A stretch of 64,000 nucleotides of DNA from Phycisphaerales bacterium. Its GTDB lineage: Bacteria; Planctomycetota; Phycisphaerae; Phycisphaerales; SM1A02. The DNA lies in assembly GCA_014238205.1 (NCBI GenBank), contig JABABM010000002.1, positions 62,001 through 126,000 of the forward strand, given 5' to 3'. Below, in pieces: positions 5,983 through 62,191 of the stretch (position 1 is its first letter; every line of letters starts with the position of its first letter). The position numbers were made by a program, and so were the translations under genes. The notes under the pieces are model-generated. The model had not been told where the DNA came from. It saw only the letters and a list, made by a program, of their open reading frames with translations, and did not search any database.

Positions 5983-6066
5983 GGATCAATTTCCCTTCTG
6001 AACAGTACACTCATCGACAAGTCGTGGCCCGGGGCTTTCCGGGTTTTCACGTGATGGGCCGTCAAC

Positions 6067-51905: not shown

Positions 51906-51974
51906 TTCCATGGTCCTCTTCAGGGGATTCCGGGTGCAGTGGGACTCAATGCCCGCTTTCAGGGACATGAACCA

Positions 51975-54900
51975 GTGAAAGAGATGCTTACGTCCATCAT
52001 GAATATGGTGTGCATTCCGCTACGCCGCTGGAGCAGGCTGCTTGCAGCAGTCGCCGCAGGGTGGCTTGGGACGGTTGCATTCGCCATACCCGACGGTGGA
52101 ACGTGGGAATATGGAAATGGAACCATCACCTACAGCGGTGGTGGAACAACCCTCACGATCAATGCTTCTTCCAACAGCAGCATCATCAACTGGCTTCGCT
52201 TCAATATCGCCAATGGGGAGAGCGTCTTCTTCAACCTCCCCGGCTCCTCGTCGCGAGTACTCAATCGCATCAATGCAGCAAACGGCATCTCCTTCATCAA
52301 TGGAGTGCTTGCATCGAATGGGCAGGTCTACCTGGTGAATCCAGCAGGCATCACCTTCGGGGCCAACTCGATCCTGAATGCAAACCGCATCTACGCAGCG
52401 GCGGGTGACATGAGTTCCGATGATTTCCTTACCGGCATCGACCGCTTCACGAACCTCCAGGGAGAAATCATCAACCAGGGCTCGGTCACAGCGAACGAGG
52501 TCCATTTCGTCGGACATCGTGTCGTGAATGACACGACCGGCGTCGTCCAGGGCGGATTGATCAGCTTCAGCACGGGAAACGAGGTATGGATTCAACGCGT
52601 TGGAGACGGTATCTCCATCCGAATCGATGGACAGGACCTTGGAGATCCGCAGGAAGGGACAGTCAACGCATCACTTGACGGTGCCGGAGGCATCGAGAAT
52701 CACGGCTCCATCATCGCCGATCCCGGAGGCGCGATACATCTCGCGGCCGGTGACCTGCATGGTCTTGCACTGCTGAATACCGGCACGATCCAGGCGTCCG
52801 GAGGAACCATCCAGCTCACAGCTCGAGGCGGAGCGATACACAATGACGTGACAGGCGTCATCGACGCTTCCAACAGCACTGGTGATGGTGGCAACGTCCT
52901 TATCCAGGGGCCCGTCATCGTCAACCGCGGTCTCATTGCCGCAAATACGGATGCTGTCGGCGGCGAAGCCGGAACGATCGACGTCCGGGCGCATACGAAC
53001 GCCATCTTCACGGAGACCAGCAATGTCGAAGCCCGTGGCAACATTGCCGGGAGCGGTGGTGAAATAAACATCGAGGCAACAAATGGAACCGTCTACCTTG
53101 CCGAAGGTGGAACGCTCGATGTCAAGGGCGGCCTCCTTGGTGGAGACGGCGGCTCCGTCTCGATCACCGGAGGCCAGGTTTACCACAGAGCCACGACAAA
53201 GGTCGGGGCAATCAATGGCGCTGACGGCTCACTCTCCGTCACCGTTGACGAAAGCATTGTCACGACCGACGCATCCGTCGGGGACCCGGTGGGAGATCCT
53301 TCCGGCCTGGACCTGACTTCCGCAATCAATGTCACCAGCCAGATCGGAACCAATGTCCTGCACATGTTCGATGGAGATGTCTCGATCGACTCCTCGGAGA
53401 ACGTCTCCGTCATTGACGGGTTTGATCTGAATGGACATGACCTGGACATCAATGCAGGAAGCAACATCAATCTCTTCAACGAAGTCACAGGATTGAATGA
53501 TTTCACGCTTACTGCAGGCAACACGATCGAGTTCGGTGACAGTTTCACGGATATTGCCGGTAACGCCGCATTCACCGCGACCGAGATCAGGATCAACGCT
53601 TCTTCCCCCGTCTCCATCGAGACAGGTGGTTGGCAGACCTGGGATGGCGATGTCGTTCTGCAGGAAACAGACCTTTCCGTAACCGCGGAATCAGCTGAAT
53701 TCACCGGCACGATTGATTCGGACGGTCCAATGCATGCTTCCGAACTGAGCATCGATGTCGATGGTGAACTGCAGATTCTCGGTTCGATCGGTGCAAACGG
53801 GACCCTTGGTGCGATCGACCTGTCAGCAGACCTGATCACGCTCGGTGGAACTGAAATCAACGCCTTCGGTGACATCCTCCTGAATGCGGACGGTCATGCC
53901 GAGTTCGGTGATGTTGCAACCATCGTCGGGCTCGCGGATTCTCTTTCAATCACCTCTTTCCTGGGCGACATCCTGCTCGGGCAGAACGAGGTCTTTACCC
54001 AACTGGGCGATCTCTCCATGGAATCCGCTGGACTGGTCAGGATCGGCGACATCAATACCCTTGGCGATTTCAGCGTAACTGCGCCCGACATCGAGATCAT
54101 GAGTCGTGAAGGCGGTGACATACTCCAGTCTGATGGCACCTATGCATTCTCCCCTGGTGTTGCATGCATCGCCGGTGGCTCCATCTTCTTCTCAAGCACG
54201 CCGACCATACTTGGGTCTCTTGGTGCCGATCCGGTATTTGCTTCGGCCGAGGAATCAAGTTCATTCGTCTCAACCCTCAGTGGTTTCGAGACCATGCAGA
54301 TTGAACCTCTGGACATAAGCGACTTCACCTTCGGGGACGTGGTCCTCAATCTTCATCCCGTTCCAGCAGACGATGGAGGCGGAGATGATCCGGCAAACGG
54401 TAACGATGACTCTTCCCCCGGAGGAACGACACAAGGTGATCTGCCGGGATTGAACATCAGTTCCCTGCTTGCTTCCGCTGAACAGGTCGGTGCGACTGAA
54501 GACGGTCCACTGGTAATCGAGGATCCAGAAGAAGGCGTTCTTGCCGATTCCGAGGGTCTCATCGTCACGGCTACCGACCTTTCAATCGAGGTGGAAGTCC
54601 TTTCGGAGAATCCTGATGATCAACAGGGGTCCCTTACCCGGTCGGATATTCTCGCCAACTATCCTGTGAACAGCGTCAACCCGACCACTGGAAACATCCG
54701 GGTCAAGCAACGACGGTTGAATCGCACCATGCTTCGCAAGAGCCTTGGGAAGTACCAGGAGCTGCTTGCGATGCAGCCAGGTGACGTCGAGGCCAACCTC
54801 GAGAACAACAACACGACTCACATTGCAGATTCAATCAACTCCGCCTGGGCCGAGTATTCCGAGTCCCGGGAGGGCCAGGCCACTGGCGCCGGCTTCGGGG

Positions 54901-55106
54901 ATTGGGTGGAGTCGAATGCAGGGCAGGTGGAAACCCGGCAGTACATCCGCGACCTGCAGGAGGTCTTCAGCGACCTCAACAGGAGCGGGCTCAGCAGTGG
55001 GGAGTTCAACTACGCCCGAAACAGAACGATTCAACGGATCATGGAAAGCAGCACTGGGCCGAGTGGGATGACATCATCGCAACTCAGTGCCACACTGGGA
55101 TCCTGA
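51975..55106 (+). CDS. TpsA-type secreted exoprotein (filamentous haemagglutinin-like)
   Basis: A 1043-residue exported protein. A long signal peptide with a polar n-region and core A-A-V-A-A-G-W-L-G-T-V-A-F-A precedes the TPS secretion domain (residues about 38-270). That domain has F-N-I-A-N-G-E-S-V and V-N-P-A-G-I-T-F-G (the N-P-N-G-I counterpart). The middle (about 270-780) is a Gly/Asp/Asn-rich right-handed beta-helix of irregular repeats. An acidic Gly/Pro linker follows (about 795-830), then an unusual basic, helical C-terminal domain of about 200 residues. No Cys pair is seen at the C-terminus. GTG 51975 is chosen for its AGGGA site nine bases upstream; ATG 51984 and GTG 51939 are alternatives. 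Confidence 0.85.
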   Translation: MKEMLTSIMNMVCIPLRRWSRLLAAVAAGWLGTVAFAIPDGGTWEYGNGTITYSGGGTTLTINASSNSSIINWLRFNIANGESVFFNLPGSSSRVLNRINAANGISFINGVLASNGQVYLVNPAGITFGANSILNANRIYAAAGDMSSDDFLTGIDRFTNLQGEIINQGSVTANEVHFVGHRVVNDTTGVVQGGLISFSTGNEVWIQRVGDGISIRIDGQDLGDPQEGTVNASLDGAGGIENHGSIIADPGGAIHLAAGDLHGLALLNTGTIQASGGTIQLTARGGAIHNDVTGVIDASNSTGDGGNVLIQGPVIVNRGLIAANTDAVGGEAGTIDVRAHTNAIFTETSNVEARGNIAGSGGEINIEATNGTVYLAEGGTLDVKGGLLGGDGGSVSITGGQVYHRATTKVGAINGADGSLSVTVDESIVTTDASVGDPVGDPSGLDLTSAINVTSQIGTNVLHMFDGDVSIDSSENVSVIDGFDLNGHDLDINAGSNINLFNEVTGLNDFTLTAGNTIEFGDSFTDIAGNAAFTATEIRINASSPVSIETGGWQTWDGDVVLQETDLSVTAESAEFTGTIDSDGPMHASELSIDVDGELQILGSIGANGTLGAIDLSADLITLGGTEINAFGDILLNADGHAEFGDVATIVGLADSLSITSFLGDILLGQNEVFTQLGDLSMESAGLVRIGDINTLGDFSVTAPDIEIMSREGGDILQSDGTYAFSPGVACIAGGSIFFSSTPTILGSLGADPVFASAEESSSFVSTLSGFETMQIEPLDISDFTFGDVVLNLHPVPADDGGGDDPANGNDDSSPGGTTQGDLPGLNISSLLASAEQVGATEDGPLVIEDPEEGVLADSEGLIVTATDLSIEVEVLSENPDDQQGSLTRSDILANYPVNSVNPTTGNIRVKQRRLNRTMLRKSLGKYQELLAMQPGDVEANLENNNTTHIADSINSAWAEYSESREGQATGAGFGDWVESNAGQVETRQYIRDLQEVFSDLNRSGLSSGEFNYARNRTIQRIMESSTGPSGMTSSQLSATLGS

Positions 55107-56696: not shown

Positions 56697-57611
56697 ATGC
56701 ATTTTGAGGACATCCGACAACGAGACGCTCGAACCATCAGTTTCGAGTTCTTTCCTCCGGCTTCGAGCAAGGCTCTTGAAGCGCTGCGGGAGAGACTGGC
56801 TGATTTCATCTCCCTCGACCCTTCCTTTGTTTCAATCACCTACGGCGCAGGTGGATCGACAAGGGAGAGAACCCATGACCTGGTCGTTGAACTCCAGGGA
56901 TCAGGCAAGGTTGATCCGATTCCCCATTTGACCTGTGTAAATCAGACACGGGATGAAGTTCAAGTCATTCTGGAACGATATGCATCCTCCAAGGTAAGCA
57001 ACCTGCTGGCCCTCCGAGGCGATGCGCCGGCAGATGATGACGAGTATGAGCGTGGGGATGATGAGTACACATTTGCGATAGATCTCGTCAAACATGTATG
57101 CAGGTTCAATGAATCAGGGCTGCACCCTGACCCACGTGGATTTGGCATTGGCGTCGCCGGTTTCCCTGAAGGTCATCCTGAGACTCCCAATCGGCTCAAG
57201 CAACTGGGCTTTCTCAAGGAGAAGGTGGATGCTGGCGCACACTGGGTCACCACCCAGTTGTTCTTTGACAATGCTGCTTTCTACGACTGGCGAGAACGGT
57301 GTGACCTGATCGGAATCAATGTTCCGCTCGTTGCGGGCATCATGCCCCTCACCAGCATGAAGGGGCTCCACAGGATGGCGGAACTCGCTGCCGGAACCAA
57401 CTTCCCAGCCAGGCTTCAGCGGGAAATCTACCGGCACCAGGATGATCCGAAGGCTGTTGAGCAAGTTGGGATCGAGTGGGCGACTCAGCAGTGCAGGGAT
57501 CTTCTCGAACAGGAAGCAGCCGGGATCCATTTCTACACGTTGAACAACTCCGATGCGACCATGCAGATCTTCCGCTCCCTGGGCGCCAAGGATGCTTCCG
57601 GCCTGCGTTGA
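56697..57611 (+). CDS. metF: Methylenetetrahydrofolate reductase MetF
   Basis: A 304-residue flavoprotein that reduces 5,10-methylene- to 5-methyl-tetrahydrofolate for methionine synthesis. F-E-F-F-P-P at residues 16-21 contains the catalytic Glu. T-Y-G-A-G-G-S-T-R, L-T-C-V-N-Q, N-L-L-A-L-R-G-D and F-D-N-A-A-F-Y-D-W form the FAD/NADH site. The size is that of bacterial MetF. It heads a row of closely spaced + strand genes running to the aldehyde dehydrogenase genes. No S-box or other methionine riboswitch fits in the short region upstream. Confidence 0.93.
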   Translation: MHFEDIRQRDARTISFEFFPPASSKALEALRERLADFISLDPSFVSITYGAGGSTRERTHDLVVELQGSGKVDPIPHLTCVNQTRDEVQVILERYASSKVSNLLALRGDAPADDDEYERGDDEYTFAIDLVKHVCRFNESGLHPDPRGFGIGVAGFPEGHPETPNRLKQLGFLKEKVDAGAHWVTTQLFFDNAAFYDWRERCDLIGINVPLVAGIMPLTSMKGLHRMAELAAGTNFPARLQREIYRHQDDPKAVEQVGIEWATQQCRDLLEQEAAGIHFYTLNNSDATMQIFRSLGAKDASGLR

Positions 57612-57657
57612 AGTGCAATTTGCCTTCCAAGGTCGTTCCATCTACCCTCATTTGTTC

Positions 57658-57879
57658 ATGTCCAGATTGCGAACCATTCTTGGAATGTTTTCCGTACCGG
57701 GGTTCTGCTGCGCGATTGCCGCTGCCGCCGAGACTCCCAGCGGGCCACTTCCTCCGCCGAACCCGAGCCAGAATCAGAATGCTCCTGCCGTATGGATGGG
57801 GATGCTCCTCATGTTCGTCGTCGTTGCGATCATCGTGAGCGTCAGCATGATGCCCTCGAAGCGTGGCCACCAGGACTGA
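57658..57879 (+). CDS. Small single-pass membrane protein
   Basis: A 73-residue protein with a signal-like first stretch and a strong hydrophobic helix near residues 45-62, separated by a Pro/Asn segment. The first part (V-P-G-F-C-C-A-I-A-A-A-A-E-T) could be cleaved, leaving one membrane span. It begins 46 bases after metF, ahead of two more envelope proteins. No function is known. Confidence 0.6.
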   Translation: MSRLRTILGMFSVPGFCCAIAAAAETPSGPLPPPNPSQNQNAPAVWMGMLLMFVVVAIIVSVSMMPSKRGHQD

Positions 57880-57885
57880 ATACAC

Positions 57886-58203
57886 ATGAAACCGATGCCA
57901 CGCAGACATGTTGCCGGAAACAGGCCCGCGTCCCGGTTCCTGCTGGGCCTGAATGCGATGCTGCTGCTGCTTGTTGCTCTCGTGACATGGTCTCCAACCG
58001 TCCAGGCTCAACTCGGACTCCGCGGACACTATCTCCTTGTTTCCGGCGCCGGTGAATCGGAACGATCAGACCGGGTCTGGGTTTTTGATACACGGGGAGC
58101 GGAACTCATCACGCTTCAATGGAAGGACCCGGGCAAGGGAATCCGTTCTACGGCACACCGGAATATCCATCGCGATATCGAGAACATCCTCCGGACACGA
58201 TGA
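57886..58203 (+). CDS. Small exported protein, unknown
   Basis: A 105-residue protein with a signal peptide: basic start, then leucines at about 24-31, with cleavage likely near A-Q-A. The mature part of about 65 residues is basic, with a strand-rich start (Y-L-L-V-S-G-A). It starts 6 bases after the previous gene. The arrangement hints at a small envelope assembly made together with the next gene; function unknown. Confidence 0.6.
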   Translation: MKPMPRRHVAGNRPASRFLLGLNAMLLLLVALVTWSPTVQAQLGLRGHYLLVSGAGESERSDRVWVFDTRGAELITLQWKDPGKGIRSTAHRNIHRDIENILRTR

Positions 58204-58206
58204 ACA

Positions 58207-58545
58207 ATGAATCAACCTACAACATCAAGCTGGTTCTCTTCTTCAACTGATCGAATCCTCGGTCTTGGAGCAGTCATCATGGCGGGCTTCCTGGGGTTCC
58301 TGCTGCTCCAGGCACCAGCACCAGCGGTCGAAGCAGGCATGATCGTCTCCGGCGAAACGTTCACCCTCATGACAGCGGCTGCTCGAACGGACGGAACTGT
58401 CACGGATGAGGATGCTCTCTACATCGTCGACAACCACAACGGGATCCTCCTGGTCTACAGGGCGCAGATGCAGGGTGGAGTAGAGCGAATCGTTCTCGTG
58501 GATGGTGGGTTCGTCGATGACCTCTTTGCCACGGTACGGAATTAG
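58207..58545 (+). CDS. Membrane-anchored small protein, unknown
   Basis: A 112-residue protein with one hydrophobic helix near residues 17-35 and a soluble part of about 70 residues. L-Y-I-V-D-N-H-N-G-I-L-L-V-Y resembles a single beta-propeller-like or PQQ-like strand pair. It starts 3 bases after the previous gene. Its length and D-x-x-x-G-x-L-L-V-Y pattern resemble those of its upstream neighbour, so the two may share a fold. Confidence 0.6.
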   Translation: MNQPTTSSWFSSSTDRILGLGAVIMAGFLGFLLLQAPAPAVEAGMIVSGETFTLMTAAARTDGTVTDEDALYIVDNHNGILLVYRAQMQGGVERIVLVDGGFVDDLFATVRN

Positions 58546-58586: not shown

Positions 58587-59504
58587 ATGCCAGTCGAACG
58601 CAGAGTTGATACCGTCATGGTGGACCAGAGAGCCGGGGCATTCTCCCGGAGATCCATCAAGACGGATTCAAAGGCTGCAGGCCTTCGACTGGCCATCTCA
58701 ATGCTGGACCTGACGACACTCGAAGGGAAAGACTCCCCCGACAAGGTTCGTTCTCTTTGCCGAAAAGCCATGAGGCCCTATGCCGGGGAACTGGATCTGC
58801 CCGTGCCCGCAGTAGCAGCAATCTGCGTCTACCCATCACATGTACAGACTGCCGCCCGCATGCTTGCAGGATCAGGTGTCAAGGTCGCTTCGGTTGCCAC
58901 GGGCTTTCCAAGCGGCCAGTATCCCCTGGATGTACGCCTGAAAGATGTCAGCGCTGCCATCGATGCGGGAGCGGATGAGATCGACATGGTCATCAACCGC
59001 GGCGCGTTCCTGTCAGGAAGAGAGACCGAGGTTGCCGAAGAAATCCGTCAGGTCTGGCAGGCATGTGATGGTGCCCATCTGAAGATCATCCTTGAAACCG
59101 GTGAGCTCGAGACCTACCAGAACATCAGGAAGGCCAGTGACCTGGTAATCGAAGCCGTCGCATCAACAGGGGTGCTTCGTGATGGCGAGGTATTCATCAA
59201 GACCTCAACCGGCAAGATCTCGCCTGCAGCGACAATGCCAGTCACCCTTGTCATGCTGGAAGCCATTCGAGACCACTTCATTTCGACTGGAATCCGGATC
59301 GGCATGAAGCCGGCGGGAGGAATCAAGACCGCCAAGCAGGCTCTCCATTACCTTGTCATGGTCAAAGAGACGCTTGGGGAGGATTGGTTGACCCCCGGAC
59401 TCTTCCGGTTCGGAGCTTCAAGTCTGGCAAACGACCTCCTGAGACAGCTGCTGAAGGGATTGACGGGACACTACATGGCCATGCACGATTTTTCCGAGGC
59501 TTGA
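58587..59504 (+). CDS. deoC: Deoxyribose-phosphate aldolase DeoC
   Basis: A 305-residue aldolase. DeoC splits deoxyribose 5-phosphate into acetaldehyde and glyceraldehyde 3-phosphate by a Schiff-base lysine. A-A-I-C-V-Y-P near residue 82, E-I-D-M-V-I-N-R-G and the active-site V-F-I-K-T-S-T-G are the family marks. It is about 50 residues longer than E. coli DeoC, through an extended N-terminus. ATG 58587 is chosen; TTG 58560 and GTG 58569 are alternatives. The aldehyde dehydrogenase genes that follow would oxidise the acetaldehyde or related products. Confidence 0.92.
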   Translation: MPVERRVDTVMVDQRAGAFSRRSIKTDSKAAGLRLAISMLDLTTLEGKDSPDKVRSLCRKAMRPYAGELDLPVPAVAAICVYPSHVQTAARMLAGSGVKVASVATGFPSGQYPLDVRLKDVSAAIDAGADEIDMVINRGAFLSGRETEVAEEIRQVWQACDGAHLKIILETGELETYQNIRKASDLVIEAVASTGVLRDGEVFIKTSTGKISPAATMPVTLVMLEAIRDHFISTGIRIGMKPAGGIKTAKQALHYLVMVKETLGEDWLTPGLFRFGASSLANDLLRQLLKGLTGHYMAMHDFSEA

Positions 59505-59511
59505 ACCACCC

Positions 59512-60975
59512 ATGACAGGCGTTGATTCACATACCGCAGGAACCACCGGCTGGGAATACAGTCCCGCCCCCGAGCGAACACGTGTCGCGATCAAGGATGA
59601 ATACGGTCTCTTCATCAATGGCTCCTTTTGCGCCCCGAAATCTCGCCGGCGATTCGACACGATCAACCCTGCTACCGAGGAAACGCTCTCGCGTGTGGCC
59701 GAGGCGGGACCAGCGGATGTCAATGCCGCCGTCGAGGCTGCAAAGGCTGCAGGCCCGGGCTGGGCACGATTGAAGCCCTCCGAGCGTGCAAAGTTCCTCT
59801 TTCGAATTGCCCGTCGGATACAGGAACGCTCACGTGAACTGGCGGTGCTTGAAACCATGGATGGTGGCAAGCCGATCAAGGAGTCCCGGGATATCGACCT
59901 GCCGCTCGTGGCACAGCATTTCTTCTACCACGCAGGCTGGGCAGACAAGCTCGCCTACGCGTTCCCGGGTCGAACACCAAGGCCCGTCGGCGTGTGTGGT
60001 CAGATCATTCCGTGGAACTTCCCCCTGCTCATGGCTGCATGGAAACTCGCTCCGGCACTGGCCTGTGGGAATACGTGTGTTCTCAAGCCCGCTGAAACGA
60101 CTTCCCTGACAGCGCTTCACCTTGCGGAGATCTTCCAGGAAATCGAACTTCCTCCCGGCGTTGTCAACATCATCACGGGCGCCGGGGAGACAGGTGCTGC
60201 GATCGTGGAACATCCGGATGTCAAGAAGGTCGCGTTTACCGGATCGACGGAGGTTGGCAAGCATCTTGCCCGGTCCGTCGCCGGTACCGGCAAGAAACTG
60301 ACACTTGAACTGGGTGGAAAGAGCCCGAACATCATCTTTGCCGATGCCGCAATCGACCAGGCCATAGAGGGAATCGTCGCTTCCATCTGGTTCAACCAGG
60401 GACATGTCTGCTGTGCAGGTTCACGACTGTTCGTCCAGGAATCGATCGCCGACGAGGTCATCGACAAGCTGGCCCATCGAATGCGATCGCTTCGAATAGG
60501 GGATCCGCTCGACAAGAATACCGACGTGGGTGCGATCAACTCCAGTACACAGCTGAAGACCATCGAGCGATACATCGACGCAGGTGGAGATGAGGGTGCC
60601 GTTCTGCACGAGGTCAATGAACAGCCTCTTCCAGACAAGGGGTACTGGTGCCGTCCATGCTTCTTCACGGGGGTCCAGCCTTCCCATGTCATCGCCCGGG
60701 AAGAGATCTTCGGACCGGTTCTTTCGGTCATGACCTTCCGTACGCCCGAGGAGGCGCTGGCCCGGGCGAACAACACGCCCTATGGATTGGCCGCGGGTGT
60801 CTGGACGAATACGGGATCGAAGATCTTCGAGATCGCCAGGAAACTCGATGCAGGTGTGGTCTGGTGCAACACCTACAACAAGTTCGACGCAAGTTCTCCC
60901 TTTGGTGGATTCAAGGAATCCGGATTCGGTCGTGAGGGTGGTCGCCACGGCCTGAGGGCCTATGTGAAGTTCTGA
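59512..60975 (+). CDS. Aldehyde dehydrogenase, catalytic half of an ALDH16-like pair
   Basis: A 487-residue NAD(P)-dependent aldehyde dehydrogenase with all functional motifs: P-W-N-F-P (near residue 164), L-E-L-G-G-K-S-P-N with the catalytic Glu, and G-H-V-C-C-A-G-S with the catalytic Cys near residue 300. It follows deoC by seven bases. Together with the truncated ALDH-like gene at 61316 it matches the layout of ALDH16, in which a complete ALDH domain is fused to a second one that lacks catalysis. Here a membrane-protein gene lies between. Acetaldehyde oxidation to acetate is the likely role. Confidence 0.88.
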   Translation: MTGVDSHTAGTTGWEYSPAPERTRVAIKDEYGLFINGSFCAPKSRRRFDTINPATEETLSRVAEAGPADVNAAVEAAKAAGPGWARLKPSERAKFLFRIARRIQERSRELAVLETMDGGKPIKESRDIDLPLVAQHFFYHAGWADKLAYAFPGRTPRPVGVCGQIIPWNFPLLMAAWKLAPALACGNTCVLKPAETTSLTALHLAEIFQEIELPPGVVNIITGAGETGAAIVEHPDVKKVAFTGSTEVGKHLARSVAGTGKKLTLELGGKSPNIIFADAAIDQAIEGIVASIWFNQGHVCCAGSRLFVQESIADEVIDKLAHRMRSLRIGDPLDKNTDVGAINSSTQLKTIERYIDAGGDEGAVLHEVNEQPLPDKGYWCRPCFFTGVQPSHVIAREEIFGPVLSVMTFRTPEEALARANNTPYGLAAGVWTNTGSKIFEIARKLDAGVVWCNTYNKFDASSPFGGFKESGFGREGGRHGLRAYVKF

Positions 60976-60977
60976 TC

Positions 60978-61292
60978 ATGAGTGAACCCATTCCACACGA
61001 ACGAACCCTCCTGCTGCGTGTCCTTGGACATGCCGGCATGCGATGCATCGAGGCATTCGTGCTGGCCTGGATCGTGTGGTTTGCCGCAGACCTGGTGCTT
61101 ACTTCAGGGGAGCGGGACCACAGCATGTGGGAATACATGGTGCAGAATGGCATCGGGGAGTTCTGGGAGCACCTCTTCCTGGTCAAGGACTCGGCGGTCC
61201 GTGGAGGCGCCTGGGGACTGGTCTTCGGCTGCCTCTGCATCGTGTGCTTCATGCGGTATCGAGTACAACTCAGGAACCTTCTGGAAGGCTGA
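60978..61292 (+). CDS. Small membrane protein between the two ALDH genes
   Basis: A 104-residue protein with two hydrophobic helices near residues 24-42 and 76-92, joined by a soluble loop rich in Trp, Glu and His (M-W-E-Y-M-V-Q-N...E-F-W-E-H-L-F). It begins two bases after the catalytic ALDH stop and ends 23 bases before the second ALDH gene. The position is conserved enough in spacing to be part of the operon. It might anchor the ALDH complex, but that is a guess. Confidence 0.65.
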   Translation: MSEPIPHERTLLLRVLGHAGMRCIEAFVLAWIVWFAADLVLTSGERDHSMWEYMVQNGIGEFWEHLFLVKDSAVRGGAWGLVFGCLCIVCFMRYRVQLRNLLEG

Positions 61293-61315
61293 TCAACTGT
61301 AGGCTGGAGCTGTAC

Positions 61316-62191
61316 ATGCCCGAACGTCTGGACATCATCAAGACCTGCAAGCTCTTCATCGGGGGATCCTTCCCTCGAACCGAGTCCGGTCGGTCCGCGC
61401 CCGTCCATGATGGACGTGGTCGCGTGATAGCCCACGTCTGCATCGCTTCCAGGAAGGATCTTCGGGAAGCAGTCGAGTCGGCTCGTCGAGTGTCTGACAG
61501 CTGGGCCGATGCCTCCGCCTATCTCCGGGGACAGATTCTCTACCGGATGGCGGAGATGCTGGAAAGCCGGCGGGAGGAGTTCGCATCGGCCATCAGCACG
61601 ACCACGCCGCTTACGCCTGCAAAGGCGCGACGTGAAGTTGATGCAAGTGTTGATCGCCTTGTCCGGTTCGCAGGCTGGACTGACAAGTTCCAGCAGGTGC
61701 TCGGATGCCAGAATCCGGTTGCCGGTCCCTATTACAACTTCTCTGTTCCACAGCCAAGCGGCATCACCGGCATCCTGTCACCGGATGCCCCATCGCTTCT
61801 TGGCCTGGTAACAATGATTTCCGCGCCGTTGTGTACCGGATGCCCTGTCGTTGCAGTTGCCTCGGATTCAACCCCACTGCCAGCGGTTCTGCTTGGTGAA
61901 GTCTGCGCAACCTCCGATATTCCAGGCGGTGTTGTCAACATCCTCACCGGGAACCGGGCTGAACTCATTGAGCCCATGGCTGAACACCGGGAAGTACAGG
62001 TCATTGCGGCAGCCAATCTGAAGCCTGCGCAGCGTGAGTTGATTCAGACTGCAGCTGCTGATGGGCTCAAGCGCATACACCTGCTCGAGCATTCAGATTC
62101 ATCGTGGCTTGATGATGATGCTGCAGCTTCGCCCTGGGAAATCGATCCCTACCTCGATACCAAGACGATCTGGCATCCTTCGGCAACTTGA
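61316..62191 (+). CDS. Non-catalytic ALDH-like protein (ALDH16 C-terminal half)
   Basis: A 291-residue protein with the N-terminal half of an ALDH fold (F-I-G-G, V-A-S-A-R-R, a P-x-G-x-x-G-I-L-S-P-D nucleotide-site analogue, P-G-G-V-V-N-I-L-T-G). It ends before the region that would hold the catalytic Cys, and the P-W-N-F counterpart reads S-P-D-A. It is therefore a non-catalytic partner. The combined length with the first ALDH gene (778) is that of ALDH16, and the second domain there is also degenerate. No frameshift or stop remnant is seen past its end: a lipoprotein gene converges 15 bases downstream. The start is ATG 61316. Confidence 0.8.
   Translation: MPERLDIIKTCKLFIGGSFPRTESGRSAPVHDGRGRVIAHVCIASRKDLREAVESARRVSDSWADASAYLRGQILYRMAEMLESRREEFASAISTTTPLTPAKARREVDASVDRLVRFAGWTDKFQQVLGCQNPVAGPYYNFSVPQPSGITGILSPDAPSLLGLVTMISAPLCTGCPVVAVASDSTPLPAVLLGEVCATSDIPGGVVNILTGNRAELIEPMAEHREVQVIAAANLKPAQRELIQTAAADGLKRIHLLEHSDSSWLDDDAAASPWEIDPYLDTKTIWHPSAT

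What the first reader, a model, noticed from the sequence alone, without database searches (positions are those of the whole stretch)
58587..62191. Split ALDH16-like locus next to deoC, with a membrane-protein gene between the halves
A complete aldehyde dehydrogenase (487 residues) and a second, non-catalytic ALDH-fold protein (291 residues) follow deoC. Their sum, 778 residues, equals the size of ALDH16, a two-domain enzyme with a dead C-terminal domain known in animals and some bacteria. Here the two halves are separate genes with a 104-residue membrane protein gene between. This could be a natural 'unfused' ALDH16 that forms a membrane-attached aldehyde-oxidising complex fed by DeoC.
Basis: partly seen in the sequence, partly recalled or inferred. 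Interest (0 to 1): 0.75.

Follow-up and report, generated by a model that had tools for sequence, protein, structure and literature searches.

The report
Two-gene ALDH16-like aldehyde dehydrogenase beside deoC
The locus encodes, as two neighbouring genes, the working half and the dead helper half of an aldehyde-oxidising enzyme that elsewhere is a single protein (ALDH16); the same two-gene arrangement, next to the DNA-sugar-breaking gene deoC, is widespread in planctomycetes and actinobacteria, so it is a natural system for asking what the dead half is for.

Summary
deoC, an intact catalytic ALDH (487 aa), a 104-aa two-helix membrane protein and a 291-aa non-catalytic ALDH-fold protein (here called C16) are packed in one operon. 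Both ALDH proteins match the solved bacterial ALDH16 (6MVR) better than any other structure, C16 over its whole length. C16 is not a pseudogene (dN/dS 0.05). It occurs with the catalytic half in 88 of 94 same-family genomes that carry either. Deletions are complementary: the catalytic half has lost the oligomerisation hairpin and terminal strand of ordinary ALDHs, and C16 keeps both but lacks the catalytic domain. The arrangement is not unique: 101 split loci were examined in Planctomycetota, Actinomycetota and Verrucomicrobiota, and 90 have deoC within 2.5 kb upstream; 17 of 19 fused ALDH16 loci do too. Split and fused forms are sister clades. Best reading: a two-subunit ALDH16-like enzyme oxidising the acetaldehyde released by DeoC. 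The membrane gene is not part of the unit: it occurs only in two genera (5 of 121 genomes), and other lineages have other genes, or none, between the halves. Split ALDH16 was not found in the open-access papers searched. Complex formation and substrate are inferred, not shown.

The parts
58587..59504 (+). deoC, deoxyribose-phosphate aldolase (305 aa from ATG 58587; open from TTG 58560)
   Evidence: TIGR00126 equivalog 162.8 bits over cut-off 117.3; PF01791
59512..60975 (+). catalytic half: complete, apparently active ALDH of ALDH16 N-terminal type (487 aa); catalytic Cys, Glu, Asn, Lys present; short hairpin; ends at GLRAYVKF without the last strand
   Evidence: best PDB match 6mvr residues 12-475, E 1.3e-162; site columns; ends and hairpin
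60978..61292 (+). 104-aa two-helix membrane protein of unknown function, inserted between the halves only in genera g1 and g7
   Evidence: no family; hydropathy; 5 of 121 family genomes; dN/dS 0.16-0.38
61316..62191 (+). C16: non-catalytic half equal to the whole C-terminal domain of ALDH16 (291 aa); keeps hairpin and terminal strand (YLDTKTIWHP), lacks catalytic domain and the NAD-binding Lys
   Evidence: best PDB match 6mvr residues 500-765; AF2 model pLDDT 91, pTM 0.90; Foldseek best 6mvr/6mvs/6mvu, TM 0.87-0.88 over 288 columns
61302..61309 (+). possible ribosome-binding site (GGCTGGAG) just upstream of the C16 start codon
   Evidence: read from sequence

Best explanation
The locus makes a two-subunit ALDH16-like aldehyde dehydrogenase for deoxyribose (deoxynucleoside) breakdown. 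DeoC splits deoxyribose-5-phosphate into glyceraldehyde-3-phosphate and acetaldehyde (established for the DeoC family). The catalytic subunit oxidises the acetaldehyde to acetate with NAD(P)+. The C16 subunit has no active site. It supplies the oligomerisation flap (hairpin plus terminal strand) that the catalytic subunit has lost, and packs on it as the second subunit of an ordinary ALDH dimer would, restoring in trans the arrangement that fused ALDH16 holds in one chain. Shown: homology of both halves to ALDH16, complementary sequence losses, co-conservation and operon linkage with deoC. Inferred: physical heterodimer, requirement of C16 for folding or activity, acetaldehyde as substrate. 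The 104-aa membrane gene is a lineage-specific insertion in the operon, not a part of the enzyme.
For: Sequence: C16 to 6mvr, overall E 4.2e-63, next best ordinary ALDH 3.8e-25; profile aligns to residues 501-765 including the end strand, E 2.9e-88; catalytic half best PDB match 6mvr. Fold: AF2 model of C16 pLDDT 91; Foldseek ranks 1-3 are bacterial ALDH16, 288 columns, TMq 0.87-0.88, ordinary ALDHs about 250 columns and 0.76-0.80. Complementary losses: segment holding the hairpin is 31 residues in an ordinary ALDH of the same order (L016), 28-31 in C16, 18-22 in the catalytic halves; the L016 end YLETKTVWV is matched by C16 YLDTKTIWHP while catalytic halves stop at GLRAYVKF. Active site: Cys302, Lys192, Glu399 equivalents in 46/46 split and 18/18 fused; Glu268 and Asn169 in 45/46 and 18/18; the Lys is absent from every C16. 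Selection: dN/dS against the same-genus genome 0.038 (catalytic), 0.054 (C16), 0.041 (DeoC). Co-occurrence 88 of 94 genomes, Fisher p 1.7e-20, not corrected for phylogeny; at least one exception (G005) is a contig end. deoC upstream in 90/101 split and 17/19 fused loci. In many Streptomyces/Amycolatopsis loci the catalytic stop codon overlaps the start of C16, as in translationally coupled subunits.
Against: No complex was modelled or measured; the tools fold single chains only, and the catalytic half alone gave an unusable model (pLDDT 41.5 from five rows). In some genomes C16 lies far from or without a nearby catalytic half (L160 9 kb; L045, L075, L158 none in the stretch), so tight linkage is not essential. 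Acetaldehyde as substrate rests on gene linkage; the catalytic half reaches no NCBIfam equivalog cut-off. No thymidine phosphorylase (TIGR02644) was found in the 95%-complete genome, although purine nucleoside phosphorylase-family genes were.
Confidence: 0.75

Rival explanations
1. Membrane-attached complex: the 104-aa membrane protein anchors the two ALDH halves to the membrane near DeoC.
For: The gene lies between the halves in all five genomes that have it, is under purifying selection, and is predicted to have two transmembrane helices.
Against: Absent from 116 of 121 family genomes, most of which carry the split enzyme; other split loci have nothing or unrelated genes between the halves; fastest-evolving gene of the operon.
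Confidence: 0.07
2. C16 works apart from the catalytic half, for instance as a binding or regulatory protein that is merely co-transcribed.
For: C16 can lie kilobases from the catalytic gene (L160) or without it nearby (L045, L075, L158).
Against: Near-perfect co-occurrence, single-chain fusion of the same two parts in the sister clade, complementary flap losses.
Confidence: 0.12
3. C16 is a decaying truncated duplicate of the neighbouring ALDH with no function.
For: It is homologous to the N-terminal half of ordinary ALDHs and lacks catalytic residues.
Against: dN/dS 0.05, intact frame in the full-length loci examined, 44-46 invariant residues, presence across three phyla, internal deletion keeping the far C-terminal strand.
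Confidence: 0.01
4. The two-subunit enzyme is real but oxidises another aldehyde (a sugar aldehyde, glyceraldehyde phosphate, or a general aldehyde load), deoC linkage reflecting shared regulation.
For: Fused loci also sit with RbsD/FucU, ribokinase, aldose epimerase and sugar ABC transporters, so a sugar substrate is possible; no equivalog cut-off reached.
Against: deoC is the one gene shared by split and fused loci, and its product acetaldehyde is a typical ALDH substrate (general knowledge).
Confidence: 0.25

Closest known systems
Bacterial ALDH16, Loktanella sp. (PDB 6MVR/6MVS/6MVT/6MVU; Liu and Tanner 2019, as reviewed in PMC8160307)
   Same: Both halves match it best by sequence, C16 also by fold; catalytic half active-site residues intact; catalytic half without hairpin and last strand; C-terminal domain with the flap, without catalytic domain; deoC next to the fused gene in the proteobacterial loci examined here
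   Different: One polypeptide there (17-30 residue linker in the fused loci examined here), two genes here; separate sister clade
Vertebrate ALDH16A1
   Same: Same domain order if the two genes are read together
   Different: One polypeptide whose catalytic domain lacks the Cys (PMC8160307); the split catalytic halves keep it. Its sequence was not compared here
Long PutA proteins with a C-terminal non-catalytic ALDH-fold domain (from memory)
   Same: A dead ALDH-fold domain covering a working aldehyde dehydrogenase domain
   Different: Part of a proline-oxidising fusion enzyme; not among the 60 best PDB sequence hits of C16. Not otherwise tested
Ordinary ALDH1/2-type homo-oligomers
   Same: Fold and catalytic residues
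   Different: Carry their own hairpin and end strand; no partner pseudo-subunit

Membership tests
ALDH16 | N-terminal catalytic ALDH domain of ALDH16 type, with Cys and Glu in bacterial members | tested here: met
   6mvr best PDB match; residues conserved; split and fused form one clade against three outgroup ALDHs, support 99
ALDH16 | C-terminal non-catalytic ALDH-fold domain lacking the catalytic domain | tested here: met
ALDH16 | Both domains in one polypeptide of about 770-800 residues | tested here: not met
   two separate ORFs with a third gene between them; no fused gene in the split clade
ALDH16 | Flap (hairpin and end strand) missing from the catalytic domain and supplied by the C-terminal domain | tested here: met
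   at sequence level, split and fused alike; strand 280-288 in the C16 model
ALDH16 | ALDH16-type dimer built from four ALDH-like units | not testable with these tools
   no complex modelling; single-chain model of the catalytic half failed
Ordinary truncated ALDH gene | Closest to ordinary ALDHs, with decay or no lineage-wide conservation | tested here: not met
DeoC (TIGR00126) | Score over the curated equivalog cut-off | tested here: met
   162.8 against 117.3 bits

The most novel reading that the evidence does not exclude
The two-gene form is the ancestral state of ALDH16: a working ALDH and a diverged ALDH copy first became an obligate heterodimer by complementary loss of flap and catalytic domain, feeding on DeoC acetaldehyde, and were later fused once in the lineage of the single-chain ALDH16s. 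The trees do not exclude it (sister clades, root between them; both halves of the split form lie slightly nearer the outgroup), but neither do they exclude one fission.
Probability: 0.45. Interest if true: 0.65.

Novelty: new variant of a known kind. Interest (0 to 1): 0.52.

Why it matters
The role of the dead domain of ALDH16, including the vertebrate protein linked to gout, is unclear. A natural version with the dead half as a separate gene, present in culturable Streptomyces, lets one remove, titrate or swap that half directly. The constant deoC neighbour in both forms gives a testable physiological substrate. The complementary losses would be a clear case of tertiary structure in one protein standing for quaternary structure in another.

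Tried and rejected
Pseudogene or truncation (dN/dS). Membrane protein as a constant part. Frameshift or assembly split: rejected because independent genomes share the two-gene form with other spacings. In-frame TGA in deoC of several relatives: the ones re-checked were alignments running upstream of the start codon or no stop at all. Tandem origin of C16 from the neighbouring ALDH: not resolved; C16 is a long separate branch. Structure of the catalytic half: alignment too shallow, model unusable. Published split ALDH16 or an ALDH16-deoxyribose link: nothing found in open-access papers; the primary 6MVR paper is not in the library. The eight rows that one search prints as fused with a negative linker are loci without a catalytic half, not fusions. 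A first alignment had two rows on the wrong strand and was replaced; the deoC count failed and was redone.

Full report
Observation. The window is part of a 2.44 Mb, 95% complete genome, G000. deoC, a 487-aa ALDH, a 104-aa ORF and a 291-aa ALDH-fold ORF lie in that order on the + strand with gaps of 7, 2 and 23 nt. Families: DeoC equivalog; PF00171 over the whole long protein and over only the first half of the profile in the short one; nothing for the 104-aa ORF.

What the halves are. By sequence, the short protein (C16) hits bacterial ALDH16 6mvr with overall E 4.2e-63 against 3.8e-25 for the best other ALDH. A 14-row profile extends the match to residues 501-765 of the 767-residue chain. 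The long protein also has 6mvr as best PDB match. The AlphaFold2 model of C16 is confident (pLDDT 91, pTM 0.90), and Foldseek puts three bacterial ALDH16 structures first, over 288 columns. C16 is therefore a complete ALDH16 C-terminal domain encoded as its own gene.

How the halves fit. The segment around the oligomerisation hairpin is 31 residues in an ordinary ALDH (L016), 28-31 in C16 and 18-22 in the catalytic halves. The terminal strand motif (YLETKTVWV in L016) is present in C16 (YLDTKTIWHP) and missing from the catalytic half, which ends at GLRAYVKF. C16 in turn lacks the catalytic domain. Each half lacks what would have no partner surface in a one-to-one pair: the catalytic half has no flap, because C16 has no catalytic domain to receive it; C16 has the flap. 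The same holds in fused ALDH16 rows here and agrees with the published description that tertiary contacts in ALDH16 mimic ALDH quaternary contacts (PMC8160307). Catalytic residues are intact in the catalytic half and the NAD-binding lysine is absent from every C16. That the two bind is inferred.

Distribution. In 121 genomes of the same family, C16 was counted in 92 and the catalytic half in 90, with 88 shared. C16 was counted from the table at E of about 1e-50 or better. The overlap test (Fisher p 1.7e-20) does not correct for shared ancestry. Beyond the family, split loci were found in other Planctomycetota, many Streptomyces and Amycolatopsis and other Actinomycetota, and Verrucomicrobiota; the sample is weighted to Streptomyces by the scan. 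Of 101 loci tallied as split, 82 have under 120 nt between the catalytic stop and the C16 domain, often with stop/start overlap. Fused genes were found in Sinorhizobium, Caballeronia, Nitratireductor, Agrobacterium, Pseudochrobactrum and Paracoccus plasmids and in some Planctomycetota.

Link to deoC. deoC lies within 2.5 kb upstream on the same strand in 90 of 101 split and 17 of 19 fused loci, and within 300 nt in 79 and 15. Fused loci also carry RbsD/FucU, ribokinase, aldose epimerase, deoR-type regulator and sugar transporter genes. This supports a role in deoxyribose breakdown; acetaldehyde as substrate is inferred.

Tree. The catalytic tree separates fused (18 rows, support 99) and split (46 rows, support 98) as sister clades; the C16 tree agrees (97 and 87). 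These were quick trees with three outgroup rows, one of them on a long branch. One event, fusion or fission, explains the data; direction is open. Path lengths to the outgroup are slightly shorter for split rows in both trees, which is weak.

Membrane gene. It occurs in 5 of 121 family genomes, genera g1 and g7, always between the halves, with dN/dS 0.16-0.38 against 0.04-0.15 for its neighbours (synonymous sites are near saturation). Other lineages have a SIMPL-domain gene (L041; a similar ORF in L052), a POT transporter (L076), a GNAT acetyltransferase (L036) or an unrelated membrane ORF (L038) in the gap. It is best read as a local insertion, possibly with its own function.

Verdict. A two-gene variant of ALDH16, widespread, linked to deoC, ordinary in chemistry but informative about a poorly understood family. 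The single-chain criterion of ALDH16 is not met, so it is filed as a variant rather than as a member in the strict sense. The literature search covered open-access full text only, so earlier description in subscription journals cannot be excluded.

Noticed in passing
L027:5777-7381 (genome G020, another family of the same order): A split catalytic half with several active-site motifs changed (Glu268 to Gln, Asn169 to Gly, Phe401 to Pro; catalytic Cys kept) in an otherwise intact frame next to deoC and C16: possibly a dying or pseudo-enzyme form, as in vertebrate ALDH16A1. No second genome of that family was held.
   Followed up: partly
L160 (C16 9 kb from the catalytic half); L045, L075, L158 (no catalytic half in the stretch): C16 can be unlinked from its partner gene.
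   Followed up: partly
L058, L064, L074 and many other Streptomyces/Amycolatopsis loci, around 6001-6008: Catalytic stop codon overlaps the beginning of the C16 frame, suggesting translational coupling of the two subunits.
   Followed up: partly
L041:5248-5985; L052 gap; L076:4522-5877; L036:4325-4828; L038:5606-6001: Unrelated genes have been inserted between the two halves in different lineages (SIMPL domain, POT transporter, GNAT acetyltransferase, other membrane ORF).
   Followed up: yes
window 57553-58545: Short ORFs upstream of deoC (108, 105 and 112 aa) with hydrophobic stretches and no family over its cut-off; relation to the operon unknown.
   Followed up: no
window 51939-55106: 1055-aa ORF that looks like a filamentous-haemagglutinin-type secreted repeat protein (read from its sequence, not searched).
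   Followed up: no
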